A stretch of DNA of 64,000 bases from positions 20,656 through 84,655 of IMG/VR virus record IMGVR_UViG_3300021963_000083. The stretch is one strand, 5' to 3'. The position numbers and the translations under genes were made by a program. Position 1 is the stretch's first letter. Every line of letters begins with the position of its first letter. Below the pieces are notes generated by a model, which saw only the letters and a program-made list of their open reading frames with translations, did no database searches and was not told the DNA's origin. This document shows, piece after piece, positions 8,186 through 64,000 of this stretch. This DNA is from a virus.

Positions 8186-9487
8186 ATGAAGGCTATCATT
8201 AGCAACAAGATTTACATGACGGTAGAGCCTTCGATGTATAAGTACCTTGATAAGGAGCTTACATATCATATTCCGTCATATAATGAGCCAGAGAAATTTG
8301 TAAGTATTAAGAACTTAAAAGTCATAAACTACAATATAGCTGGTGGAAAAATGCTGGTAGCGTTTCCAGTTGGTCGTATAGATCTTATACCAAAAACTTT
8401 TGAAATAGTTGATAAACGAGCTTATAACTACTTGGAAGACTTTCCTAAGTTTAAGTTCGAACTAAGACCAAGCCAGCAAGAGATTCATAATGAAGTAGAA
8501 GATAACTGCATCATCAATGCAAAAGTTGGTTACGGTAAAACATTTACGGCTTTAGCTATCGCTGCTAAATTGCAACAGAAGACTCTTGTGGTAACTCACA
8601 CAGTCGCTCTTCGTAATCAGTGGGAAAAAGAAGTAGTAAATACTCTAGGAATAAAACCTGGAGTAATTGGAAGTGGTAAGTTTAATATGGATAGCCATGT
8701 AGTAGTGGCTAATATACAAAGTCTTATTAAGCACGTCGGAAGAATAAGCAGGGAATTTGGAACTGTTATTTTGGACGAAATGCACCACGTATCTAGTCCT
8801 ACTTTTTCTAAAGTTATAGATGCTATGTTCTGTCGTTATAAGATTGGGCTATCTGGTACTATTGAACGCAAAGATCAGAAGCACGTAGTATTTAAAGATT
8901 ATTTTGGTTCGAAGTTATTTAAGCCAGATAAAGAAAATACTATGGTTCCTGAGGTTCATGTTATCAACTCTGGGATATATTTCTCTGACAGCTCCGGAGC
9001 ATCTTGGGCAGAGAAAATTAATGTGTTAAAGGAATCCTATCTATACAAAGACTTAGTGGTTGCATTGGCAGATAAATACGCTAGTGAAGGGCACAAGGTC
9101 ATCATAGTATCTGATAGGGTTGACTTTTTAAGAGCATGTAATCATAACTCTACTTATCCCTCCGATTTAATTATTGGAGAAGTAAAGGATAGAGACGAGA
9201 TAATTAGAAAGATATTTGAAGATGAGATTGACCAAATATGGGGAACTCAAAGTCTAGTATCTGAGGGTTTGTCAATTAATCCTTTAAGCTGCTTAATACT
9301 TGCTACTCCACTTAATAATATGCCTCTACTAGAACAGTTGATAGGTCGTATTATTCGTGAGTATCCAGATAAACTGAAACCAGTCGTAGTGGACATTAGA
9401 CTAGAGGGTAATACTGTCAGTAGGCAATATAACAATCGTCTAGGTCACTACATGAAAGAAGGCTATGAGATAAAATTCATAAAATAG
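8186..9487 (+). CDS. UvsW-like superfamily 2 helicase
   Basis: 433 residues with SF2 motifs in order: Walker A AKVGYGKT at about residue 111, motif II DEMHH at about 197, motif III LSGTIER, and motif VI QLIGRIIRE at about 387. The small N-terminal domain followed by the DExH core matches phage T4 UvsW, an ATP-dependent branch-migration helicase that turns origin R-loop priming into recombination-dependent replication. Its presence fits the SbcCD (gp46/47-like) pair downstream. A GGGATATATCCC palindrome lies just upstream of the start. Confidence 0.85.
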   Translation: MKAIISNKIYMTVEPSMYKYLDKELTYHIPSYNEPEKFVSIKNLKVINYNIAGGKMLVAFPVGRIDLIPKTFEIVDKRAYNYLEDFPKFKFELRPSQQEIHNEVEDNCIINAKVGYGKTFTALAIAAKLQQKTLVVTHTVALRNQWEKEVVNTLGIKPGVIGSGKFNMDSHVVVANIQSLIKHVGRISREFGTVILDEMHHVSSPTFSKVIDAMFCRYKIGLSGTIERKDQKHVVFKDYFGSKLFKPDKENTMVPEVHVINSGIYFSDSSGASWAEKINVLKESYLYKDLVVALADKYASEGHKVIIVSDRVDFLRACNHNSTYPSDLIIGEVKDRDEIIRKIFEDEIDQIWGTQSLVSEGLSINPLSCLILATPLNNMPLLEQLIGRIIREYPDKLKPVVVDIRLEGNTVSRQYNNRLGHYMKEGYEIKFIK

Positions 9488-9490
9488 TTC

Positions 9491-9519
9491 TTGACTTTTA
9501 TCCTTATTTTTGGTAATAT
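9491..9519 (+). promoter_or_regulatory. Sigma70-type promoter inside the replication operon
   Basis: TTGACT at 9491-9496 and TAATAT at 9514-9519, 17 bp apart, directly after the UvsW-like gene. The -10 overlaps the first ATG of the next open frame (9518), which makes that gene's start uncertain. It probably boosts the ssDNA-binding gene. Confidence 0.55.
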
Positions 9520-9913
9520 GCTATTATACAGTTGGAAGAAAATACTAAGAAAGTCGGGTGGCAGCTCTAAAAGGATATTAACTATCCTAAAAGCTATAAC
9601 TCAACGGGAACTACCCAGACATGTATACGATCCAGTGTATAAGTATTATTATACTGACTTTTCGGGGAACAGTTTTCTAGTAAATCCAAGTGCTCTGCTT
9701 ATAAATAGATATAAGTGGAAAGATAAAGAAATAGCAGACTATATCGGTCTAGCTAGCTTTAGAAGCACCGGAGATTACATGGCAACTGGAAAAGTAACAT
9801 TAGACTTAGCCCATAGCCCCATGGGACAAGACGCAATCAACAACAACAGACTACTTCGTATTGACAGAGGTGAAATCCACTTCCTTTACGAAGATTACAC
9901 AGGAGAAAAATAA
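9518..9913 (+). CDS. Small phage protein of unknown function upstream of ssb
   Basis: About 131 residues if read from ATG 9518. The first part is basic; the middle (YDPVYKYYYTDFSGN...) is aromatic-rich. No family recognised. The start is doubtful because the 9491-9519 promoter overlaps the ATG: transcripts from that promoter would lack it, while read-through transcripts would carry it. Its stop overlaps the next start (TAATG), implying coupled translation with the ssDNA-binding gene. Confidence 0.5.
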   Translation: MLLYSWKKILRKSGGSSKRILTILKAITQRELPRHVYDPVYKYYYTDFSGNSFLVNPSALLINRYKWKDKEIADYIGLASFRSTGDYMATGKVTLDLAHSPMGQDAINNNRLLRIDRGEIHFLYEDYTGEK

Positions 9914-10548
9914 TGGCAGGTTTAGGCTTTGGTTCAGTTAAGGGTTCAGCTAAGAAAGAAAAAGCTGAATCATACAAAATGATTGATGGAGACAATTCAG
10001 TTCGTCTCTTCGGAAATATCCTAGCACGTTACGTGTACTGGATTAAGGGTACGAATGGTAAGAATCTTCCGTTCGAGTGCCTTGAGTTCAATCGTGAAAC
10101 TGAAACTTTCGATAAGGCTGAAAAAGATTGGGTTAAAGAATTTTATCCCGATATTAAGTGCGGCTGGTCATACTCAATGATGTGCCTTGATAATGGTGTT
10201 CCAAAGATCTTCAACTTCAAGAAGAAGCTCTTCGATCAGATTATGGCTAACATTGAAGACCTTGGTGATCCTACAGACCTCGACAATGGTTGGGTTCTAA
10301 AGTTCAGCAAGAAGAAGACTGGTCCTCTACCAATCAACGTGGAGTACACTCTACAGACCATTAAGTGTCAGAAGTCGAAGGGTCCAGCTACTCAAGAAGA
10401 GCGTGATGCTATTGAAGCATCAAAGACCATTGAAGAACTTCTACCTCGCGCAACCCCAGCAGCTCAGAAGGAACTTCTAGAGAAGCTACTAAGCGGTGAT
10501 GCGGACGCTATTGATGAGTCAGTAGAAGAAGAGCTCAACGTTCAGTAA
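9913..10548 (+). CDS. Probable single-stranded DNA-binding protein (gp32-like)
   Basis: 211 residues with an OB-fold-like aromatic core (SVRLFGNILARYVYWIKG, CGWSYSMMCLDNG, KIFNFKKKLFDQI) and an acidic C-terminal tail (DADAIDESVEEEL), the arrangement expected of a phage SSB whose tail contacts replication partners. Codons are markedly optimised compared with neighbouring genes, and a strong terminator follows; both fit an abundant DNA-covering protein. Identification is by overall pattern and context. Confidence 0.65.
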   Translation: MAGLGFGSVKGSAKKEKAESYKMIDGDNSVRLFGNILARYVYWIKGTNGKNLPFECLEFNRETETFDKAEKDWVKEFYPDIKCGWSYSMMCLDNGVPKIFNFKKKLFDQIMANIEDLGDPTDLDNGWVLKFSKKKTGPLPINVEYTLQTIKCQKSKGPATQEERDAIEASKTIEELLPRATPAAQKELLEKLLSGDADAIDESVEEELNVQ

Positions 10549-10554
10549 TCAAGT

Positions 10555-10590
10555 AAGCCCAGCTAATCTCGGTTAGCTGGGCTTCTTATT
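10555..10590 (+). terminator. Intrinsic terminator after the ssDNA-binding gene
   Basis: AAGCCCAGCTAA pairs with TTAGCTGGGCTT across a TCTCGG loop, followed by CTTATT. It probably limits read-through so that the SSB is made in excess over the nuclease genes. Confidence 0.8.
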
Positions 10591-10599
10591 CGGAGAATT

Positions 10600-11559
10600 A
10601 TGAGTAAATTACTAATAGCCGATATACACATTAAGCTAGGACAGAAGAATGTACCACGTGAATGGGCGTTAAAACGCTACGATATGTTCTTCGACCAAGT
10701 AGCTGAAGTGGAAGATGATGTGGATGAGATTATCATCCCAGGCGACTTGTTCGATAGGATGCCTACTCTAGATGAGTTATCCCTATACTTCAAGTTTATT
10801 TCGCAACGTACTAAGCGAACGATTATTAGTACAGGCAATCACGAAGCCACAAAGAAAGGTAGAAGCTTCTTCACGGAACTCAAAGGAGTTACAGAAAGAC
10901 TTAATCCTAATGTGGAAATAGTGGTTGATTATATTCACGAATCAGAAGAGTACTATGTAGTTCCTTATGAGTTCGTGAAGAATAAAAGCACGTGGGACGA
11001 CCTAGACCCTAGGTATGTGTTTACCCATGTTCGTGGAGAAATTCCCCCACACGTTAAGCCAGAGATTAATTTGGACTGGCTTGATAAGTTTCCTATAGTA
11101 TTTGCTGGTGACTTACACTCACACTCTAACACTCAGAGAAACATAGTATATCCTGGTAGTCCTATGACTACTTCCTTTCATAGAAATGAAGTACAGGCTG
11201 GATATATTATTATTAATGACGACTGGACTTGGACATGGAAGGCTTTTGATCTTCCACAGCTTATTCGTAAGACAGTCTCAGATCCGTCTGAAATGCTGCC
11301 TACAGATTTCCACCATACAATATATGAGTTGGAAGGCAATATTAAGGACCTAAGTAAAATCGAACATAGTGATCTACTAGATAAAAAGCTAGTAAAACGT
11401 AGCAGTGATACTGCTCTCGTCTTAGATAAAAAGATGACTATTTCCGAGGAACTAACAGAGTATCTACGGTATATTCAGGAACTACCTGATATTGAAATAG
11501 ATAACATTATGGAGGTGTTTAATGAGTACGGTGGTACTTCAATCAATCAAATGGGATAA
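10600..11559 (+). CDS. SbcD/gp47-like recombination nuclease subunit
   Basis: Calcineurin-type metallophosphoesterase motifs appear in order: ADIHIK (residue 7), GDLFDR (about 49), GNHE (about 83), THVRG and GDLHSHS (about 170-175). The 319 residues match the phage T4 gp47/SbcD/Mre11 class, which with the neighbouring SbcC-like ATPase resects double-strand ends for recombination-dependent replication. The first motif has DIH as in gp47. It overlaps the ATPase gene by 38 nt. Confidence 0.9.
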   Translation: MSKLLIADIHIKLGQKNVPREWALKRYDMFFDQVAEVEDDVDEIIIPGDLFDRMPTLDELSLYFKFISQRTKRTIISTGNHEATKKGRSFFTELKGVTERLNPNVEIVVDYIHESEEYYVVPYEFVKNKSTWDDLDPRYVFTHVRGEIPPHVKPEINLDWLDKFPIVFAGDLHSHSNTQRNIVYPGSPMTTSFHRNEVQAGYIIINDDWTWTWKAFDLPQLIRKTVSDPSEMLPTDFHHTIYELEGNIKDLSKIEHSDLLDKKLVKRSSDTALVLDKKMTISEELTEYLRYIQELPDIEIDNIMEVFNEYGGTSINQMG

Positions 11560-45842: not shown

Positions 45843-47903
45843 CTACTTTGAGGTTGCTCTATATATTCCATCCCAATTAGTGGGAGGATTACTCTTGTAT
45901 TCTTTAATTCTTTCCAGCATCATATCGTAATACTGGGTCATTTCATCTTTCCAGCATTTCTTTAGATCATTTGCGTACTTTTCCGCAACTTGCCAATTAC
46001 CCAGACGATATAGCTCTAAGAACTTGACATGCTGTTTCTCAGCTAATGGGTCATGGAACGGTAACACGGTAAATATTGTGGCGGGCTCGGTCTTACCTTT
46101 TACTGCGAGTAGATCGAGCTCAACGACTTGGTATGTTTCTCGCACATACTTAGCCGTTTTTGGTCCAATGACGATTTTGACACCGTAAGGCTTGGATTGA
46201 CCTTCGAGGCGAGCAGCAAGATTAACGCCATCGCCAAGACAGGTATAATCAAAACGCTGATCAGAGCCCATATTGCCAACAACCACGGTATCAGTATTAA
46301 TACCGAGGCCCATACCAAAAGCTGGTATACCTTCTTTCGTAATTTCTGCATTAAATTCCTCCAGGGAGCTCATCATCTGGAAGGCAGTCTTCACAGCATC
46401 CAGTGCGTGGTCTTGATTATTAACAGGTGCATTCCAGAATGCCATCTGAGCATCTCCGATGTACTTATCTAGTGTGCCCTTGTTCTCAAGAATTGCTTTA
46501 GTCATAGCAGTCATGTAGCGGTTCATGATCTGCGTGAGCCCCTGCACATTCTTACCATAGTGTTCAGAAATTGTAGTGAATCCGCGAACGTCTGTGAACA
46601 TGATTGATAGTTCTTGTTCAGTGCCACCAAGTTGTAGTAGTTCTGGCTGACGTTGTAGCTGAGCAACTAAGTCTGGGCTTAGATAAGTACCAAACTGCTT
46701 CTTAATCTGTTGTTTCTGTAAATACTCACTGATAAACTTAACGGTATAGATGTGTAAGTAAATTACCAATGCTGCAAGAATGTTGAAGGAAATATCAAAC
46801 AATATCATACTATGGGTAAACAGATAGATTGGAGCGTAAACATACCCAACTAGCAATATACCAATCCAGACTATTGAATACCTTACTCTTGACAGTATTA
46901 TAATCGACAACGAAAGTACCACGAATGCCACAAGATCAACAAGACCTACCCAATTCGGAATTGATACTGAATCTCCCTTTATTAGAGTTTCAAGCAGACT
47001 GGCTTGTAGCTGATGGGGGTGCTGCGCGCCTGAAGGAGTTGCTACAGGATTATTCAATCCAGCTGCAGTCACTCCTAGAATCACGATTTTACCTTTCAAA
47101 TCAGGTAAAGGATCAGCACCAATTTCTACTGACTGGAATCGGTAATTAGGATTAATGAATGTTCTTCCATATTCATCTGTTTTAATTGTTTCAAAAGAAG
47201 GAATTCGTAATGCTTCAACACCCGTCTGATTTACCTTTGCCTGATACGAAGGATCTCCGGCAGCAACACGCAGCATCTCTAGAGCAAATGCGGGGTAGTA
47301 TTCCCCGGATGATTGCGCTAGAAGAGGAACTCGCCTTACGACCCCGTCAGTCTCAGGTAGAGTTGATGTTACTCCCACACCGGCAGCGGCTTCTTGAAGA
47401 AGTGGGATATTACTTAGAACGCATGGATATTGAGGAAGAAATTCAGTTGCTTCTCCATCGCCGACTATTGCTACTCCAGTACGGCGGGTTGTTAAAGCAC
47501 TCTTTGAACCAGAGCAATCCGTGGTTACGGTTTGACTTAGGACTGTTGGAGTGCCTGTGAGACTTTCTGAAAAAGCTTTGTCTCCGCCGAAGCGATCGGC
47601 TTCAGGATAAAGTATTGTGCTGCCAACGATACCAGCGCCAGCGCTATAAATATCTGAATTAATTTTAGCATAAACACTCCTCGGGAAAGGCCATTGTCCA
47701 TACTTTTCAATTGCCTTTTCACCAATATTTGCGACTACAATCTGTTCTGATTGTACTGGACTATCTAGCATAAGATAGTCGTAGTACTTTAATTTCATGC
47801 TGTCGACTAAGAACGGATTCATCAACTTTACTGATAACAATAGCAGTACTGTAGCTACTGCTAGCCACGGTGATAATAGAATTTTACTCGCCTTGTTTAA
47901 CAT
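45843..47903 (-). CDS. CHASE2-domain membrane adenylate cyclase
   Basis: 686 residues from ATG 47903, chosen because GGAGGA lies 10 nt upstream (47930 is a longer alternative). One N-terminal TM (WLAVATVLLLLSVKL), an extracytoplasmic CHASE2 sensor (about 40-300), three TM segments (about 320-400), then a class III cyclase domain: IMFTDVRGFTTISE (metal Asp), DKYIGDAQMAFW (Lys for adenine and second metal Asp) and FDYTCLGDGVNLAARL. The Lys plus Thr pair predicts ATP use, that is cAMP production. It overlaps the FecR-like gene by 20 nt. I know of few phage cyclases, so this is an unusual signalling gene. Confidence 0.88.
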   Translation of the reverse strand: MLNKASKILLSPWLAVATVLLLLSVKLMNPFLVDSMKLKYYDYLMLDSPVQSEQIVVANIGEKAIEKYGQWPFPRSVYAKINSDIYSAGAGIVGSTILYPEADRFGGDKAFSESLTGTPTVLSQTVTTDCSGSKSALTTRRTGVAIVGDGEATEFLPQYPCVLSNIPLLQEAAAGVGVTSTLPETDGVVRRVPLLAQSSGEYYPAFALEMLRVAAGDPSYQAKVNQTGVEALRIPSFETIKTDEYGRTFINPNYRFQSVEIGADPLPDLKGKIVILGVTAAGLNNPVATPSGAQHPHQLQASLLETLIKGDSVSIPNWVGLVDLVAFVVLSLSIIILSRVRYSIVWIGILLVGYVYAPIYLFTHSMILFDISFNILAALVIYLHIYTVKFISEYLQKQQIKKQFGTYLSPDLVAQLQRQPELLQLGGTEQELSIMFTDVRGFTTISEHYGKNVQGLTQIMNRYMTAMTKAILENKGTLDKYIGDAQMAFWNAPVNNQDHALDAVKTAFQMMSSLEEFNAEITKEGIPAFGMGLGINTDTVVVGNMGSDQRFDYTCLGDGVNLAARLEGQSKPYGVKIVIGPKTAKYVRETYQVVELDLLAVKGKTEPATIFTVLPFHDPLAEKQHVKFLELYRLGNWQVAEKYANDLKKCWKDEMTQYYDMMLERIKEYKSNPPTNWDGIYRATSK

Positions 47904-48975
47904 TGATGATGGTTCCTCCAGCCGGGTCATTTATTTCAATTAGGAATGACTTTCCATTACTATCTATAAAGAGATTTTTATTCTCATCTTTCTTGAATCT
48001 TACGTCAATGGTAGTTCCTAATGATCTTACGAGACGAATAGAATCACCAGATAAAATAGTGGCAATCTGAGTTACAGTATCTAAACCGAATGTAGTGCCA
48101 CATAACTTAGTCTCTTCTCTAGTGATACAGTTATCAATCCCTAAACTATTGTCAAGAAAGTCTTCTTTGAGAAAGTCAGCATCTATTGTATTAATATCTA
48201 GATCTGAACTTGCAAGCGTGTCTTCTGCAAGATCATCTTTTGCTAAGAAGTCTATATCTAGTTCACTTAGGTCAAGAATGTTCTCTCTTCTGTCACTACC
48301 ATCTTGATCATACTGCATTTCTTGTGCAGGAGACACGATTAGCATATTGTCAATCATATCTAGCGTTAGGTTAAGAATAACAGGTTGTGATGGTCTGCTG
48401 TCCATCGTAGATACCATAGTAGCTTGGAACGCTTTAGTAAGAATAACTGATCCGGCAGCATTAGACACTGTAATTTCCCCTACCGAACCATCAGGTTCCG
48501 GAAGTAGAATGACCAAGCTTTTACCGAAGTCATCTACTGTTGTAGCGAAATCCGTACCGCGTACCGCGATGGTAGCGGTTGGAGTTCTAAGACTAATATT
48601 ACTCTTGCTTATTCTGCCGCTCTGTCCTGTTGCGAATCTTGCTGTACCACTTGCGAACTTAAGAGCCATTCTTGAAGTAGAGGGTTTGCCACTATATACA
48701 AAATCGTCAATCACAAGCTTAGAATGCTCAGTGACCTTAACAATAGAGTTATCTATAAATGTAATTTCAACTCTACCATTACCAGTTTGCACCTTATCTA
48801 ATTTGGCAATAGGTAGCTGAGGTCGTGTAGCAACCTTAGTGGTTTTCTTCACGACCTCACTTATACCTCGGTTTTGTGTAACTTTACCTATATTAGCATG
48901 GGCCACCGGCGTTACACTGATTAATAGTAATAGTGCTGCCGTTGCTTGTGCTATTGATCTTAAGTGTGTCAACAT
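47884..48975 (-). CDS. FecR-domain exported protein
   Basis: 363 residues. A signal peptide (about 1-27, TAALLLLISVTPVAHA) is followed by a FecR domain (VEITFIDNSIVKVTEHSKLVIDDFVY, RMALKFASGTARF, ISLRTPTATIAVRGTDF). The C-terminal half is highly acidic with DL/DI repeats (LDLSELDIDFLAKDD) and two Cys. In bacteria, FecR-like proteins are frequently encoded beside CHASE2 cyclases, as here. Its first 83 nt overlap the curlin-like gene in another frame, and its end overlaps the cyclase gene. Likely periplasmic partner of the cyclase sensor. Confidence 0.82.
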   Translation of the reverse strand: MLTHLRSIAQATAALLLLISVTPVAHANIGKVTQNRGISEVVKKTTKVATRPQLPIAKLDKVQTGNGRVEITFIDNSIVKVTEHSKLVIDDFVYSGKPSTSRMALKFASGTARFATGQSGRISKSNISLRTPTATIAVRGTDFATTVDDFGKSLVILLPEPDGSVGEITVSNAAGSVILTKAFQATMVSTMDSRPSQPVILNLTLDMIDNMLIVSPAQEMQYDQDGSDRRENILDLSELDIDFLAKDDLAEDTLASSDLDINTIDADFLKEDFLDNSLGIDNCITREETKLCGTTFGLDTVTQIATILSGDSIRLVRSLGTTIDVRFKKDENKNLFIDSNGKSFLIEINDPAGGTIINVKQGE

Positions 48976-49591
48976 TAGTTGTACTCTGTTGGTTTATTGC
49001 TACTGTATTAGTGTTGCCTGTAAGAAGCATTTCAATGTTCTTCCCAGCAGTGCCGTTCTGTACGGTAGTAATAGTATTACCATCGCCTGCTATTGTCTTG
49101 GTGTTCACAACATCATCTGCGTTTATAGTAGATGTAAGTGTATTGGTGTCGCCAGTGACTGTGATAGTCTGAGTTGCATTCGTAGCAGAAGCCGCTGTAC
49201 CTTGGTTAAATGTGAGATTATTTGAATCCCCAGTAACTTCAAGGGTCTTGGTTGAACCAGCTACACTAGCGGCATCACCTTGATCATATATTAATTCGTT
49301 ACTATCTCCTGTAACAGTAACATTCATATCAACATTATCCGCCTGAACAATAGAGCCTTGTATAGAGTTGTTATTGCCTTCTTGAGTTGTTGTTATTGTT
49401 TGACTATTTCCCTGAAGAACTACACGATTTTGTTCTGTTCCAATAGTATTGCCCTGCCCCTTTTGAGTAACAGTAATTACACTACTATCACCGACCTGGT
49501 CAATAAAGATTGAGTTAGTAGTTGATTGTGCCATCACTGCTGTACTAGCTAGTGATGACATTGCTACAAGTATTAATGAATTCCTTCCCAT
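48893..49591 (-). CDS. Curlin-like (CsgA/CsgB-type) amyloid subunit
   Basis: 232 residues. Signal peptide to about residue 22 (SSLASTAVMA), then about nine 20-25-residue beta repeats rich in Asn, Gln, Thr, Gly: DQVGDSSVITVTQKGQGN, TTTQEGNNNSI, VTGDSNELIYDQ, VTGDSNNLTFNQ, VTGDTNTLTST. This is the S-x5-Q-x-G-x2-N style of curlin, with some repeats changed to TVTGDSN. It ends in QCNAGGPC, two Cys not normal for curlins. Adjacent csgG and csgF make an exported amyloid fibre the best reading. Confidence 0.78.
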   Translation of the reverse strand: MGRNSLILVAMSSLASTAVMAQSTTNSIFIDQVGDSSVITVTQKGQGNTIGTEQNRVVLQGNSQTITTTQEGNNNSIQGSIVQADNVDMNVTVTGDSNELIYDQGDAASVAGSTKTLEVTGDSNNLTFNQGTAASATNATQTITVTGDTNTLTSTINADDVVNTKTIAGDGNTITTVQNGTAGKNIEMLLTGNTNTVAINQQSTTNVDTLKINSTSNGSTITINQCNAGGPC

Positions 49592-57047: not shown

Positions 57048-57096
57048 TGGTTCATCAAGAGGGGATGGGCCTCTCCTGATAACGAAAGAAAATTTT

Positions 57097-57408
57097 ATGA
57101 CTAAGGTTGTTGAAAAGAATTACTCTGAAGCCCAAGAATCGGCTTTGCTTGCGGCTGGCGTTATTGATAACGCAAAGGCTTTGGAATTTGCCGAAAAATT
57201 CGGCAAGGATGTTCGCTCGATTCGCGCTAAGGCGGTTCGCATGGGCATTTATAAGGCACAGCCCAAGGTTTCCAAGACTGGCGGTAAAATCGAATCCAAG
57301 GAAGCGATTGCTGCCGATATTTCGGAAATCATTGGCAAGAGCCTTGAAGGTCTGGAAAAGGCCCCTAAGCTGGTTCTGCAAATTTTGCGGGAAAAGCTTT
57401 CGGCTTAA
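57097..57408 (+). CDS. HTH-domain protein, paralogue 1 (103 aa)
   Basis: 103 residues from ATG 57097. The body SEAQESALLAAGVIDNAKAL ... KFGKDVRSIRAKAVRMGIYKA is a single HTH like the third repeat of the 1157-1873 protein. The C-terminal half (IAADISEIIGKSLEGLEKAPKLVLQIL) is helical. It is of the same length as, and mostly identical in sequence to, the protein at 60064-60375. Probably a DNA-binding regulator; the promoter array around it is a plausible target. It is transcribed as its own unit with a strong terminator. Confidence 0.72.
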   Translation: MTKVVEKNYSEAQESALLAAGVIDNAKALEFAEKFGKDVRSIRAKAVRMGIYKAQPKVSKTGGKIESKEAIAADISEIIGKSLEGLEKAPKLVLQILREKLSA

Positions 57409-60063: not shown

Positions 60064-60375
60064 ATGACTAAGGAAGTTGTGAAGAACTACTCGGAAGCGC
60101 AAGAAGCCGAAATGCTGGCTGCTGGCGTTATCGACAACGACGCTGCGATTGAGTTCGCTGCGAAGTTCGGTAAGGACGTTCGTTCTATCCGCGCTAAGGC
60201 TGTCCGTATGGGCATCTACAAAGCTAAGGACAAGGTGTCCAAGAGCGGTGCTCCTATTGAGCGCAAGGAAGAAATTGTTGCGGACATCGCAGCAATCATC
60301 GGCAAGAACCTCGACGGCCTCGAAAAGGCTCCTAAGCAGGTTCTCGTTGCGTTGCGTACTCGCTTGAGTGCGTAA
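60064..60375 (+). CDS. HTH-domain protein, paralogue 2 (103 aa)
   Basis: 103 residues from ATG 60064. Same fold and length as 57097-57408: KNYSEAQEAEMLAAGVIDND..., FGKDVRSIRAKAVRMGIYKA, then AIIGKNLDGLEKAPKQVL. The two proteins are highly similar while codons differ (this copy is more GC-rich), so the duplication is old or one copy was acquired. Two promoters, at 59918 and 60004, could give two N-terminal forms. Likely a DNA-binding regulator of unknown targets. Confidence 0.75.
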   Translation: MTKEVVKNYSEAQEAEMLAAGVIDNDAAIEFAAKFGKDVRSIRAKAVRMGIYKAKDKVSKSGAPIERKEEIVADIAAIIGKNLDGLEKAPKQVLVALRTRLSA

Positions 60376-60577: not shown

Positions 60578-60606
60578 ATTATAGTGGAAAATCGACGTGA
60601 AGTCAA
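60578..60606 (-). promoter_or_regulatory. Leftward promoter, tandem unit 1
   Basis: Leftward TTGACT (60606-60601), 17 bp, TATAAT (60583-60578), TTTGGCGCC follows. About 20 nt to the terminator stem. Confidence 0.85.
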
Positions 60607-60668: not shown

Positions 60669-60697
60669 ATTATAGTGGCAAATCAATGCAAAGTCAA
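60669..60697 (-). promoter_or_regulatory. Leftward promoter, tandem unit 2
   Basis: Leftward TTGACT (60697-60692), 17 bp, TATAAT (60674-60669), CGGCGCC follows. Confidence 0.85.
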
Positions 60698-60760: not shown

Positions 60761-60789
60761 ATTATAGTGGCAAATCAACACCCTGTCAA
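60761..60789 (-). promoter_or_regulatory. Leftward promoter, tandem unit 3
   Basis: Leftward TTGACA (60789-60784), 17 bp, TATAAT (60766-60761), CGGCGCC follows. It is divergent from the rightward promoter at 60833, with about 44 bp between the -35 boxes. Confidence 0.85.
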
Positions 60790-60832
60790 GTACAATTTTT
60801 ACCAAGCCTCGCGACTCCGTCGCAAATTGGTC

Positions 60833-60886: not shown

Positions 60887-61147
60887 ATGCGTAAGATTTT
60901 CATTCTAGATGACATTGAAGTAGTGCTCTATCAGAGTGCTATTGCTATTCCTGAAATTTTCCTTAACTACGACGTAAATAAGATCGAGCTTCACGTCGAC
61001 GACGTAGATCGTCCGACTGTTTGGGAGATCGTATTCGTCGAGTCTGACGATAGTGAAGTAGTAATCGGTGAAATCACCCTTATGGAGGATTTTTCTGCGT
61101 ACTTTGACCTATTTGACGATGATGAGGGAATTATCGACGAAAGTTGA
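60887..61147 (+). CDS. Acidic protein of unknown function (86 aa)
   Basis: 86 residues, strongly acidic (VDDVDRPTVWEIVFVESDDSEVV ... DLFDDDEGIIDES), predicted beta-rich. AAGGAG gives a strong ribosome site, and a terminator follows, so it is an independent early gene. A DNA-mimic role is possible by charge only. No family recognised. Confidence 0.65.
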   Translation: MRKIFILDDIEVVLYQSAIAIPEIFLNYDVNKIELHVDDVDRPTVWEIVFVESDDSEVVIGEITLMEDFSAYFDLFDDDEGIIDES

Positions 61148-61171
61148 GATAAACCCAGATAAGTTGACATA

Positions 61172-61205
61172 AAGCCCGTTGGACTAGTTCCGGCGGGCTT
61201 TTTTG
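61172..61205 (+). terminator. Intrinsic terminator
   Basis: AAGCCCG / CGGGCTT with an inner GGA/TCC step, followed by TTTTTTG. Confidence 0.9.
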
Positions 61206-61329
61206 TTGTCTAAAATCAACTTGGCGCCGACAAAAACGAAGATTTTTTACGTGCGGCGGACCTTTTGCACACTTTTGCGTACTTTTTCAACCTCAGGGGA
61301 AGTTTATTCCAAACCACAGCAAGCAGACA

Positions 61330-61366
61330 AAAAAATAGCCCACTACAGTTTAGTAGCAGGCTAACG
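61330..61366 (-). terminator. Leftward intrinsic terminator
   Basis: Reading leftward, AGCCTGCTAC pairs with GTAGTGGGCT (two G-U pairs) across a 6-nt loop, followed by ATTTTTTT. Marks the end of the predicted noncoding transcript. Confidence 0.8.
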
Positions 61367-61902
61367 ATCTTCGTCGTAATTCTAGTAGTATTTAAGTGTA
61401 ATAGTAACGCTACGGCGGGCTAGAGTGGGCTGACGCGCGACTAGTATGGTATGGACAAGTTTGCGTTGAAAGGGTTATAAACCAGTATAAATTTAAAAAT
61501 AAGTAGGAACAGTTGTTGACCAACAAAGAGGCTTAAAATGACCTTTGTAGCTTGTTTGTATTGCAAATACAATTGTAGCCGTTAAATCGGATATTATACT
61601 GTTTTAGTTGAGCATAAACAGTTGTCTCAAACTTTGTTGCGTGTTTGGTGTATCTTCGATACTTATTGGTGAACTTCGTTCGGTTACTTGTTCTTAGGTT
61701 GATGCTTTAGTTTGAGACTTCGTCTCTGTGTGCTTGCTTTATATTAAACAGTATAAAATAGATTCTTAAAATCTTCTCCGGTACTGTTGTAGAAAGACTA
61801 CCGCTTACGCTCCCGTCTTTCTGACAACAACCCTGGAGGTTAAACTAGTGTGTAATAAACTGTATAAGTAAATATAAGCTATTACCAACTAACTATGTTA
61901 GT

Positions 61903-61931
61903 ATAATATCATGACTTTTGCGAAAAGTCAA
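61903..61931 (-). promoter_or_regulatory. Leftward promoter inside the hairpin region
   Basis: Leftward TTGACT (61931-61926), 17 bp, TATTAT (61908-61903). Its spacer contains the perfect hairpin TGACTTTT-GCG-AAAAGTCA, which overlaps the -35. Confidence 0.7.
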
Positions 61932-62016
61932 GAGTTATTTTTCTAAGGTATGGTTTAAACTTATTGTATCCTAGCGTTTGGAAACTTCGTTTCCCTGGTT
62001 GGGCTGTGATGAACTC

Positions 62017-62045
62017 TGTATAACACGGCCTGGGCTTGAAGTCAA
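62017..62045 (-). promoter_or_regulatory. Leftward promoter for the candidate ncRNA
   Basis: Leftward TTGACT (62045-62040), 17 bp, TATACA (62022-62017). It is divergent from the rightward promoter at 62062. Confidence 0.7.
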
Positions 62046-62061
62046 GTGCTAAATTTATGTC

Positions 62062-62090
62062 TTGACTTTAGCTTGTTTATGTAGTATAGT
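62062..62090 (+). promoter_or_regulatory. Rightward promoter giving a leaderless mRNA
   Basis: TTGACT (62062-62067), 17 bp, TATAGT (62085-62090). ATG 62098 is 7 nt after the -10, so it is at or 1 nt after the predicted start site. Confidence 0.82.
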
Positions 62091-62097
62091 GTCAACT

Positions 62098-62694
62098 ATG
62101 TTTAAAGATGCAGAAATATCTAACGAGAATTACTTCAATAGGCCCTTTGCCTACAGAGACTTTACACAGTCTGAATTTAAAGATTGCGAGTTCGAGGACT
62201 GTGGCTTTACAAAGGCGGACTTCCTAGGCGCGATCTTCGTCGGTTGCGACTTCTTTAGGTGCGACCTTGATATGGCGTATCTAACTGGCGTGCGCTTCGA
62301 GCACTGTCGTTTTATAGAGTGTAGCTTCAATGAAGCCTACATCTTTAGGTCGCAGTTCAAAAACTGTGAGATTACTCTATGCACGATGCGTGACGCGATG
62401 CTGTCAACTGTAGACTTTCCTGGCACGGACTTCGACTCTGTGAGCTGGAATGGCACTATAATCCATAGTGCTCCTATAATCATAGATGGGATAGAGTATC
62501 CTATTGTAGCACTAGACAATGGCTATATGCACGTCGGGTGTGAGTTCAATACTATGGATTGGTTTTATACTACAGAAGAGCAGTATAGTGCTAGAATGGA
62601 AGGGCTTCGCGCTCGCCGCTTCTGGAAGCAGAATAAGAAGTGGATATTTGATATGTTAGTAGCAAGGAAATTATATGTATACCCTGAAAATTGA
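62098..62694 (+). CDS. Pentapeptide-repeat protein
   Basis: 198 residues from ATG 62098. Residues about 15-120 form pentapeptide repeats A/C-[DE]-F-x-x (DFTQS EFKDC EFEDC GFTKA DFLGA IFVGC DFFRC DLDMA YLTGV RFEHC RFIEC SFNEA YIFRS QFKNC), giving a right-handed beta-helix. A C-terminal basic helix (RARRFWKQNKKWIF) follows. Some members mimic DNA and protect or inhibit gyrase. The longer frame from 62062 begins in the promoter and is rejected. No Shine-Dalgarno, consistent with a leaderless mRNA. Confidence 0.85.
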   Translation: MFKDAEISNENYFNRPFAYRDFTQSEFKDCEFEDCGFTKADFLGAIFVGCDFFRCDLDMAYLTGVRFEHCRFIECSFNEAYIFRSQFKNCEITLCTMRDAMLSTVDFPGTDFDSVSWNGTIIHSAPIIIDGIEYPIVALDNGYMHVGCEFNTMDWFYTTEEQYSARMEGLRARRFWKQNKKWIFDMLVARKLYVYPEN

Positions 62695-62872
62695 ATCAGT
62701 AAATGATGACTTTCTAAGAGCTGTACAGGCCGTTATTCAAGAGAATAAACTATGGCGTTATCGCGAAGTCACAGTAGGACTCTACAGTACTAGTGTAGAA
62801 GTAAGTACTATGAGTATAAAAGAACTTAATTATCTAATAAATGTTCTAAGGGAACTTGAGCATAATGAATGA
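62675..62872 (+). CDS. Small protein of unknown function (65 aa)
   Basis: 65 residues (MYTLKIESVNDDFLRAVQAVIQENKLWRYREVTVGLYS). Overlaps the pentapeptide gene by 20 nt and the next gene by 8 nt, so coupled. No family recognised. Confidence 0.6.
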   Translation: MYTLKIESVNDDFLRAVQAVIQENKLWRYREVTVGLYSTSVEVSTMSIKELNYLINVLRELEHNE

Positions 62873-63089
62873 CAGGATACAAGATGAATCAACGGCGTAC
62901 TTTCATTATTATAGTGAATTCTCCCGAGATAGAACCACCAGTATAGTTAAAGAAACTGAAGACGGCGAGTTATATATAGAACTATCCGATGAACTCCTGG
63001 AACGAATGGGCTGGACAGAAGGAACAGCACTAGTCTGGATAGTAGAGGATGATAGAATTATTCTACGCGAAGAAAAGGAACAATTATGA
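62865..63089 (+). CDS. Small protein with AbrB/MazE-like C-terminus
   Basis: 74 residues from ATG 62865. The C-terminal GELYIELSDELLERMGWTEGTALVWIVEDDRIILRE has the swapped-hairpin pattern of AbrB/MazE DNA-binding domains (L-P-x-x-L-x-x-x-G-W-x-x-G-D). It is normally found as antitoxin or regulator; no toxin gene adjoins. Overlaps both neighbours by a few bases. Confidence 0.55.
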   Translation: MNDRIQDESTAYFHYYSEFSRDRTTSIVKETEDGELYIELSDELLERMGWTEGTALVWIVEDDRIILREEKEQL

Positions 63090-63265
63090 AGTATGCAATT
63101 AAGGTATATTTACCAGACAATAGCTGGGTCTACGTAAGTGAGGGGCCGGTTGATGAAATGCGTGTATGGACTACTGACTCTCTAGAGAAAGCGGAAGCCT
63201 ACAGACAGGTCTGGGTAATTGATGGTAACGAGGAAGAAGTCGAGATAGTTGAATATCAACCTTGA
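63086..63265 (+). CDS. Small protein of unknown function (59 aa)
   Basis: 59 residues (MKYAIKVYLPDNSWVYVSEG ... EEEVEIVEYQP), AAAAGGAAC before the ATG. Predicted beta-alpha, acidic C-terminus. It ends inside the 63262 promoter. Confidence 0.6.
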   Translation: MKYAIKVYLPDNSWVYVSEGPVDEMRVWTTDSLEKAEAYRQVWVIDGNEEEVEIVEYQP

Positions 63266-63290
63266 CATCTTCGTGTCAATCCGCTATTAT
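63262..63290 (+). promoter_or_regulatory. Rightward promoter with palindrome over the -35
   Basis: TTGACA (63262-63267), 17 bp, TATTAT (63285-63290). TTGACA-TCTTCG-TGTCAA forms an inverted repeat, a possible operator. Confidence 0.75.
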
Positions 63291-63311
63291 CATTGCATAA
63301 GGAGAGAAACG

Positions 63312-63491
63312 ATGACATTTGATGATATGCTAGACCGAGTTTATGATGACCATGACCTAGTTGAGTGGGTTGAGAATGTTAGCCGCGAGACGCTGGAGCT
63401 TCAGTACATGGAACTCGTTGCTCGCTATCGACTCAAGTTTAAAGAATTGCGTGATCTATCTAAGTGTATACAGGAGGTTCACTATGGTTAA
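63312..63491 (+). CDS. Small helical protein of unknown function (59 aa)
   Basis: 59 residues from ATG 63312 (AAGGAGAG upstream). All-alpha and acidic at first (MTFDDMLDRVYDDHDLVEWV), ending in a basic segment. The longer frame from 63249 is rejected because it begins before the promoter. Confidence 0.6.
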   Translation: MTFDDMLDRVYDDHDLVEWVENVSRETLELQYMELVARYRLKFKELRDLSKCIQEVHYG

Positions 63492-63684
63492 AAATATAGT
63501 TGAAAACCTATCCGACATGGAGCGAGAATGGCTGTCAGGATGGCAGGGGGTAACAGGTGCAGCATTTAATTGTGTTGCTACTGATTTACTCCGCAAAGGT
63601 CTTTTGAGAAGCAACGTGGACTGGAACTTATCTCCTCTAGGAGTAGAAGTTCTTAATTACATAAAGGAACATGACAATGTCTAA
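63484..63684 (+). CDS. Small HTH-like protein of unknown function (66 aa)
   Basis: 66 residues from ATG 63484, AGGAGG before it. Winged-helix-like outline (AAFNCVATDLLRKGLLRSNVDWNLSPLGVEVLNYI). Overlaps neighbours by 8-14 nt. Confidence 0.6.
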   Translation: MVKNIVENLSDMEREWLSGWQGVTGAAFNCVATDLLRKGLLRSNVDWNLSPLGVEVLNYIKEHDNV

Positions 63685-63877
63685 GCATTTTATTACTGTT
63701 ATGGAAGGCATGAATGGCTTCTTCGGAGTCCATGTATGGCTTAATGAGGAAGAAGAAGATATTGGCCCCTTCTGGGAACCATATGAGCGTAGCCTTCTCA
63801 CTCATCCGACTCGTGAAGAAGCTGAAGTAGAAGCCCAACAGTGGGCAGAAGATATGGAGATGGAATACCGTGCTTAA
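63677..63877 (+). CDS. Small acidic protein of unknown function (66 aa)
   Basis: 66 residues from ATG 63677 (63671 is a close alternative). Aromatic and acidic (MEGMNGFFGVHVWLNEEEEDIGPFWEPYE ... EAEVEAQQWAEDMEMEY). No family recognised. Confidence 0.6.
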   Translation: MSKHFITVMEGMNGFFGVHVWLNEEEEDIGPFWEPYERSLLTHPTREEAEVEAQQWAEDMEMEYRA

Positions 63878-64000
63878 TATTTATTTTGATAATCTTTCAC
63901 CACAAGACGCGAAGGCACTCTTTGATGCGTTCGCTGATAAAAGCTATCTGTCTAATGCAGAGTGCAATCTAAACGGGCATAATTCAAGTGTTCGTCTAGA
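63870..64000 (+). CDS. Small protein, truncated at the right window edge
   Basis: Frame open from GTG 63870 to the end (MLNIYFDNLSPQDAKALFDAFADKS...). It overlaps the upstream gene by 8 nt. The remainder is outside the window. Confidence 0.5.
   Translation, partial: MLNIYFDNLSPQDAKALFDAFADKSYLSNAECNLNGHNSSVRL

What the first reader, a model, noticed from the sequence alone, without database searches (positions are those of the whole stretch)
61330..62045. Hairpin-dense gene-free element bounded by leftward promoters and terminator
About ten hairpins lie in roughly 480 bp. Four share the same CTTCG core (C-GAA-G triloop on the other strand) but have four different stem sequences, so pairing rather than sequence is kept. 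Others have GCA or GCG triloops. Two consensus leftward promoters and one U-tract terminator frame it, and there is no ORF. Options are a large ornate RNA (570-680 nt), or a single-strand-active replication or transcription element: C-GAA-G triloops are exceptionally stable in ssDNA, and hairpins with 3-nt loops are the promoters of N4 virion RNA polymerase.
Basis: partly seen in the sequence, partly recalled or inferred. Interest (0 to 1): 0.85.

Follow-up and report, generated by a model that had tools for sequence, protein, structure and literature searches.

The report
New hairpin-rich phage RNA gene
A T5-like virus of bacteria seems to carry a gene for a long RNA that makes no protein; related viruses keep the gene and its repeated hairpin loop while the hairpin stems change, which suggests a working RNA of unknown partner.

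Summary
Window 61336-62045 contains four C(GAA)G triloop hairpins with different stems (0 of 2000 shuffles reach four), a leftward promoter, a U-tract terminator and no ORF; it is the longest ORF-free stretch of the 84.7-kb record. A sister record (G002) and two more distant T5-like phage records (G018, G019) carry the same element beside a neighbour gene of the same family where covered. All have a leftward promoter with 17-bp spacer, a long 5' hairpin (unrelated in sequence between lineages), 2-4 perfect C(GAA)G hairpins on that strand only, and a CGAAG hairpin beside a terminator. In that last hairpin 4 of 6 base pairs change on both sides. It is most likely a 430-600-nt noncoding RNA. Rfam has no match. 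Sister phages G002 and G019 also carry a true GOLLD RNA and tRNA arrays, so this would be a second large RNA. Loop kept, stems swapped, several copies: this suggests multivalent binding of one partner, like a CsrB-type decoy; that step is inferred. The N4-promoter reading has no support. No expression data were available.

The parts
61336..61899 (-). proposed noncoding RNA gene, transcript from the inner promoter (about 565 nt)
   Evidence: promoter and terminator, homologues with the same layout
61903..61931 (-). inner leftward promoter TTGACT-17-TATTAT with TG before the -10
   Evidence: counterparts in L113 1789-1761 and L112 6604-6576; compared
62016..62045 (-). possible outer leftward promoter TTGACT-17-TATACA (would give about 680 nt)
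   Evidence: read by eye; kept in L003; not listed by the scan
61980..61994 (-). C(GAA)G hairpin GGAAACGAAGTTTCC, only in the longer transcript
   Evidence: unchanged in L003
61776..61838 (-). long 5' hairpin with GC-GUAA-GC tip and 4x4 internal loop
   Evidence: unrelated-sequence hairpins at the same place in L113 and L112
61714..61726 (-). C(GAA)G hairpin GAGACGAAGTCTC; its 3' arm could instead pair with 61624-61632 (GUCUCAAAC with GUUUGAGAC)
   Evidence: the alternative 9-bp pairing is read by eye, no covariation test possible
61671..61681 (-). C(GAA)G hairpin GAACGAAGTTC
   Evidence: L112 has GTGAACGAAGTTCAC in matching context
61650..61662 (-). C(GAA)G hairpin GTATCGAAGATAC, replaced by ATCTCGAAGAGAT in L003
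61415..61444 (-). conserved block CTAGTCGCGCGTCAGCCCACTCTAGCCCGC, identical in L003 and L113, partial (ACTCTAGCCC) in L112
61364..61377 (-). terminator-side CGAAG hairpin, bulged in the window; perfect in L003, L113 and L112
61336..61363 (-). intrinsic terminator of the RNA
   Evidence: counterpart in L113 1321-1294
60887..61147 (+). P0002, acidic 86-aa protein, convergent neighbour in G000, G018 and G019 (G002's contig ends before it)
62098..62694 (+). P0001, pentapeptide-repeat protein, divergent neighbour in the window and L003
   Evidence: homologues 4-7 kb away from the element in G018 and G019

Best explanation
A noncoding RNA gene of a T5-like phage group, read leftward from its own sigma70-type promoter (61931-61903) to an intrinsic terminator (61363-61336), about 430-600 nt in the four versions seen. 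The RNA has a long 5' hairpin, a string of short hairpins capped by C(GAA)G in A-rich linkers, a conserved linear block, and a CGAAG hairpin next to the terminator hairpin. Shown: layout, synteny and loop conservation over changing stems. Inferred: that it is transcribed. Inferred and most likely in my view: the repeated loops are copies of one binding site, so that each RNA holds several molecules of one partner (a phage or host RNA-binding protein) and acts as a decoy or scaffold, as CsrB does for CsrA. I put about 0.85 on 'noncoding RNA gene' and about 0.4 on the multivalent-binding mechanism.
For: Syntenic elements in L003/G002, L113/G019 and L112/G018. Leftward promoters with 17-bp spacers in all. 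CGAAG counts on the RNA strand 4, 4, 4 and 3, CTTCG 0 in all four; perfect C(GAA)G stems 3, 4, 3 and 2, each reached by 0 of 2000 shuffles. Terminator-side hairpin: 4 of 6 pairs changed on both sides, whole structure 89.6% of cells paired against 26-42% when slid. 5' hairpins of -28, -54 and -40 kcal/mol with unrelated sequences. Longest ORF-free stretch in G000 and G018, second in G019. RNA strand folds at z -3.5 to -6.3. CsrB as a many-site protein decoy: passages of PMC7652899.
Against: No transcript data. Only four versions in three lineages, two of them close sisters. The other strand folds well too (z -2.2 to -5.3). L112's own terminator was read by eye and not listed by the scan. The window's terminator-side hairpin is bulged, and two CGAAG copies (L113 position 253, L112 position 289 of the RNA) have no real stem. 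No partner protein is known. CsrB-type loops carry GGA, not GAA. The covariation count has four rows and its structure was drawn from these same rows.
Confidence: 0.5

Rival explanations
1. An ornate structural RNA that folds or assembles on its own, as GOLLD and ROOL do; the C(GAA)G loops make RNA-RNA contacts (a GAA triloop can complete a GNRA-like fold with one base from elsewhere).
For: Sister phages G002 and G019 also encode GOLLD; size and 5' hairpin with internal loops; GNRA-like role of a GAA triloop in the ATP aptamer, passage of PMC12550061.
Against: Most of the sequence between the three lineages is not alignable, unlike the universally conserved 3' region described for GOLLD (PMC12286853, passage); no closing 5'-3' helix seen; no Rfam match.
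Confidence: 0.2
2. A base-pairing regulatory RNA: the conserved block (61415-61444) pairs with an mRNA, tRNA or rRNA, and the hairpins are stabilisers.
For: 30-nt block identical in window, L003 and L113 while flanks differ.
Against: No 13-nt match in the own records beyond one terminator-like run; pairing runs with E. coli rRNA, phage tRNAs, tmRNA and GOLLD no better than shuffles; does not explain the repeated loop.
Confidence: 0.13
3. A DNA-level element: hairpins extruded on the - strand serve replication, DNA entry (like the T5 injection stop signal) or a hairpin-dependent polymerase (like N4).
For: d(C-GNA-G) loops are very stable in ssDNA (recalled, no call); T5 has a gene-poor injection stop signal at the end of its terminal repeat.
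Against: Kept promoter and terminator on the same strand; only GAA among GNA loops (12 of 12); no CGAAG hairpin of >=6 bp in the T5 stretch 8900-10936; T5 A1 family not found in G000-G002 and PF00940 not found, both with silent controls, so weak.
Confidence: 0.1
4. A leaderless small-peptide gene or mere decayed sequence.
For: In the block CTTATTTTTAAATTTATACTGG the four window-to-L113 changes fall at third positions of one frame (read by eye).
Against: No ATG, no Shine-Dalgarno seen; frame stops early in L113; block absent from L112; two of the four changes also fit an A-U to G-C pair swap (all by eye).
Confidence: 0.04

Closest known systems
GOLLD RNA (Rfam RF02032) and ROOL RNA
   Same: Large, hairpin-rich noncoding RNA in tRNA-rich phages; function unknown; true GOLLD present in sister phages G002 and G019
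   Different: No Rfam match; shorter; lies about 8-19 kb from GOLLD on the opposite strand; repeated C(GAA)G hairpins with swapped stems
CsrB/CsrC/RsmZ decoy RNAs
   Same: Several short hairpins with one conserved loop on differing stems (mechanism: PMC7652899, passages seen)
   Different: Loop is a GAA triloop rather than a GGA-bearing loop; partner unknown; fewer hairpins
ICP1 ~800-nt noncoding transcript
   Same: Highly expressed RNA from an orf-less gap in a lytic phage (PMC7567579, passage seen)
   Different: Other phage group; no sequence comparison made here; ICP1 has no tRNAs, these phages have many
T5 injection stop signal (AY543070 9140-10149)
   Same: Gene-poor stretch in a T5-like phage
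   Different: No CGAAG hairpin among those of >=6 bp; no DNA match of window 60900-64000 to the phage collection, which holds T5

Membership tests
GOLLD / ROOL / OLE RNA | match to the Rfam covariance model | tested here: not met
   none at gathering score, none of them among matches up to E 10, nor for L113 and L112 up to E 5
GOLLD / ROOL / OLE RNA | large gene-free RNA locus in a tRNA-bearing phage | tested here: met
GOLLD / ROOL / OLE RNA | homo-oligomer or nanocage | not testable with these tools
   needs purified RNA
CsrB-type decoy RNA | several hairpins with one conserved loop on varied stems | tested here: met
CsrB-type decoy RNA | GGA in the loops, CsrA binding | tested here: not met
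   loops are GAA; CsrA binding itself not testable
N4 virion RNA polymerase promoters | phage encodes a single-subunit T7/N4-type polymerase | tested here: inconclusive
   PF00940 absent in 6 records, controls also silent; no ORF over 1769 aa in G000
N4 virion RNA polymerase promoters | start site a fixed distance after each hairpin | not testable with these tools
   needs transcript ends
T5 injection stop signal | at the end of a long terminal repeat, with A1/A2 genes | tested here: inconclusive
   A1 family not found in 9 records, control silent; A2 not searched; ends of the genome unknown

The most novel reading that the evidence does not exclude
A phage-made decoy RNA of a new family: repeated C(GAA)G hairpins, whose stems are exchanged like cassettes between phages, titrate a so far unknown loop-reading RNA-binding protein of the host or phage, beside GOLLD and tmRNA in the same phage group.
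Probability: 0.3. Interest if true: 0.82.

Novelty: new variant of a known kind. Interest (0 to 1): 0.62.

Why it matters
Large phage RNAs such as GOLLD and ROOL have no known function. Here is a candidate second RNA in GOLLD-bearing phages whose anatomy points to a testable mode of action: one loop, many copies, interchangeable stems. It gives a defined bait (a C(GAA)G hairpin) with which a partner could be fished out, and a loop mutant as the control.

Tried and rejected
Homologue hunts. All 8 viral-contig scans: P0001 (2 loci), P0002 (19, 1), terminase (26, best 80 kept), a two-block RNA pattern (27: the 2 own-type records plus 4 chance hits inside a capsid gene), the 16-mer tip of the 5' hairpin (45: 2 own-type plus 7 chance hits), neighbour-protein paralogues (55: the scan that found L112 and L113), P0002 family (69: nothing new), 3'-end pattern (72: the same 4 records). 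Both genome-contig scans gave nothing. Phage collection: no match for window 60900-64000 (10), L113's element (75) or P0002 (77); two short trivial matches for L112's element (76). A covariance model of the terminator side, R1, was run on 83 records: strong in 3 of 83 (all already known carriers and training rows), two further weak matches inside two of those carriers (E 0.009 and 0.07) and one weak match in G060 (E 0.09), taken as chance. Most of these records are fragments, so absence says little.

Structure of P0002: mean pLDDT 53, not used. Pairing of the conserved block with rRNA, tRNAs, tmRNA and GOLLD: no better than shuffles (89). A Myb/SANT-like gene (named from the look of the sequence) sits just upstream in L112 and L113 but gave no tblastn match in G000 or G002 (111), so it is not a required partner. 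T5 injection stop signal and N4 promoters: see rivals. PMC2864571 was opened for GOLLD and held no mention (113).

Full report
WHAT THE WINDOW IS. The window is part of an 84,655-base virus record, G000. Its terminase and DNA polymerase are closest to phages of Vibrio, Aeromonas and enterobacteria with genomes of about 103-121 kb, at 44-48% identity in the rows listed; I call these T5-like from recall. A sister record, G002 (25 kb), matches the right end of G000 (94-97%) and its left end (92%), so about 12.7 kb missing from G000 lies between them (inference from those coordinates, about 97 kb in all). In that gap G002 has 18 tRNA genes and a GOLLD RNA (RF02032, 210.8 bits); G000 has 8 tRNA genes in its first 20 kb. 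Both records have a permuted tmRNA that also matches the alphaproteobacterial family, which suggests, but does not prove, an alphaproteobacterial host.

THE OBSERVATION. The hairpins are real and far beyond chance: four C(GAA)G stems of at least 4 bp in 716 bp against a shuffle mean of 0.018, 0 of 2000 shuffles reaching four. The stretch is the longest without an ORF of 60 aa in G000, 914 bp against 307 bp for the next. A leftward promoter (61931-61903) and a leftward terminator (61363-61336) frame it. An outer promoter near 62045-62016 is plausible by eye only.

HOMOLOGUES. A close sister, L003, shows the element at 90% identity with local replacements: the hairpin GTATC-GAA-GATAC has become ATCTC-GAA-GAGAT and the terminator-side hairpin GCGCAC-GAA-GTGCGC. 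This may be block exchange rather than point-by-point compensation. The promoter-overlapping hairpin with GCG loop is broken there, so that one is not a kept feature. Outside the replaced spots the element is no better conserved than the genes beside it in this pair, so this pair alone does not show constraint.

The useful relatives are L113 (G019) and L112 (G018), found through a neighbouring protein. Their long flanking matches align at roughly 66-78%, and each has a gene-free stretch just beyond a P0002 homologue (65-68% identical). L113 has a leftward promoter TTTACA-17-TATAAT and a terminator; L112 has TTGCAA-17-TATAAT with TG before it, and a terminator hairpin followed by TATTATTTTG read by eye. 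The 3' part of L113's element, or rather query 573-781, aligns with the window at 81%; a 30-nt block is identical in window, L003 and L113, and its core ACTCTAGCCC also occurs in L112.

LOOP KEPT, STEMS CHANGED. On the RNA strand the four versions (window, L003, L113, L112) hold CGAAG 4, 4, 4 and 3 times and CTTCG never. Perfect C(GAA)G stems of >=4 bp number 3, 4, 3 and 2 (12 in all), on eight different stem sequences; no other C(GNA)G hairpin occurs. For each version 0 of 2000 shuffles reach its count. The terminator-side hairpin, aligned in all four (A5), has 4 of 6 pairs changed on both sides; of all 12 pairs 89.6% of cells pair, against 26-42% when the partners are slid. The window row is bulged and counts against. 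Four rows are few and the structure was drawn from them. The 5' hairpin is present in all three lineages with unrelated sequences.

RNA OR DNA. Promoter, terminator and loops all lie on one strand in all lineages, and the only GNA loop used is GAA. I therefore favour a transcript. Folding energy does not decide: the RNA strand has z -3.8, -3.5, -6.3, -3.9 and the other strand -3.1, -2.2, -3.4, -5.3 for window, L003, L113, L112.

HOW IT MAY WORK. Several copies of one loop on interchangeable stems, spaced by A-rich linkers, is what a multivalent binding RNA looks like; CsrB, which sequesters CsrA through many sites, is the model (PMC7652899, passages). The partner here would read C(GAA)G. Alternatively the loops make RNA-RNA contacts as in an ornate assembly; a GAA triloop acts as a GNRA-like fold in the ATP aptamer (PMC12550061, passages). 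GOLLD-bearing relatives make this rival serious. Neither is shown.

DISTRIBUTION. The element was found in five viral records (G000; G001, identical over the element; G002; G018; G019). In 83 records searched with model R1, three known carriers were strong and nothing else was convincing. GOLLD was found in G002 and G019; G018 has tRNA genes from its first 200 bases on, so GOLLD may lie beyond that contig's end. No match in Rfam at gathering score over the element, in the phage collection beyond two trivial hits, or in genome contigs by protein family or pattern. Paper searches listed nothing that by title or start of abstract describes this RNA; they cover open-licence PMC papers only.

VERDICT. 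A real and conserved candidate noncoding RNA gene with no known family, with a loop-based binding mechanism as the best guess and no expression evidence yet.

Noticed in passing
L102:2824-3269 (-) in G002; L147:2891-3379 (-) in G019: True GOLLD RNAs (RF02032, 210.8 and 179.5 bits) in the sister phages; the G019 copy has a tRNA gene (L147:3233-3306) inside the matched stretch.
   Followed up: partly
L005:1026-1382 (+) in G000; L101:8284-8604 (-) in G002: Phage-borne permuted tmRNA matching Rfam tmRNA_permuted and alpha_tmRNA; ARAGORN gives the tag ANDNNAYEGLALAA for the G002 copy.
   Followed up: no
window 45843-47930 (-) and 47884-49591 (-): A CHASE2 plus nucleotide-cyclase protein in the phage, beside a FecR-like and a curlin-like repeat protein (the last two named from the look of the sequence only).
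   Followed up: no
window 60578-60606, 60669-60697, 60761-60789 (-): Three near-identical leftward sigma70 promoters in tandem, 11-12 of 12 matches, about 90 bp apart; what they drive is unclear.
   Followed up: no
window about 60811-60823; L112:5650; L113:647: A further hairpin upstream of the P0002 gene: GCGAC-GGA-GTCGC on the - strand in the window (by eye) and a 7-bp C(GAA)G hairpin in both relatives.
   Followed up: no
window 62039-62068: Palindrome in which the -35 boxes of a leftward and a rightward promoter face each other (the leftward one by eye); a possible operator.
   Followed up: no
window 57091-57408 and 60064-60375 (+): Paralogous small proteins (75% identical) in the early region; served as the bait that found L112 and L113.
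   Followed up: partly
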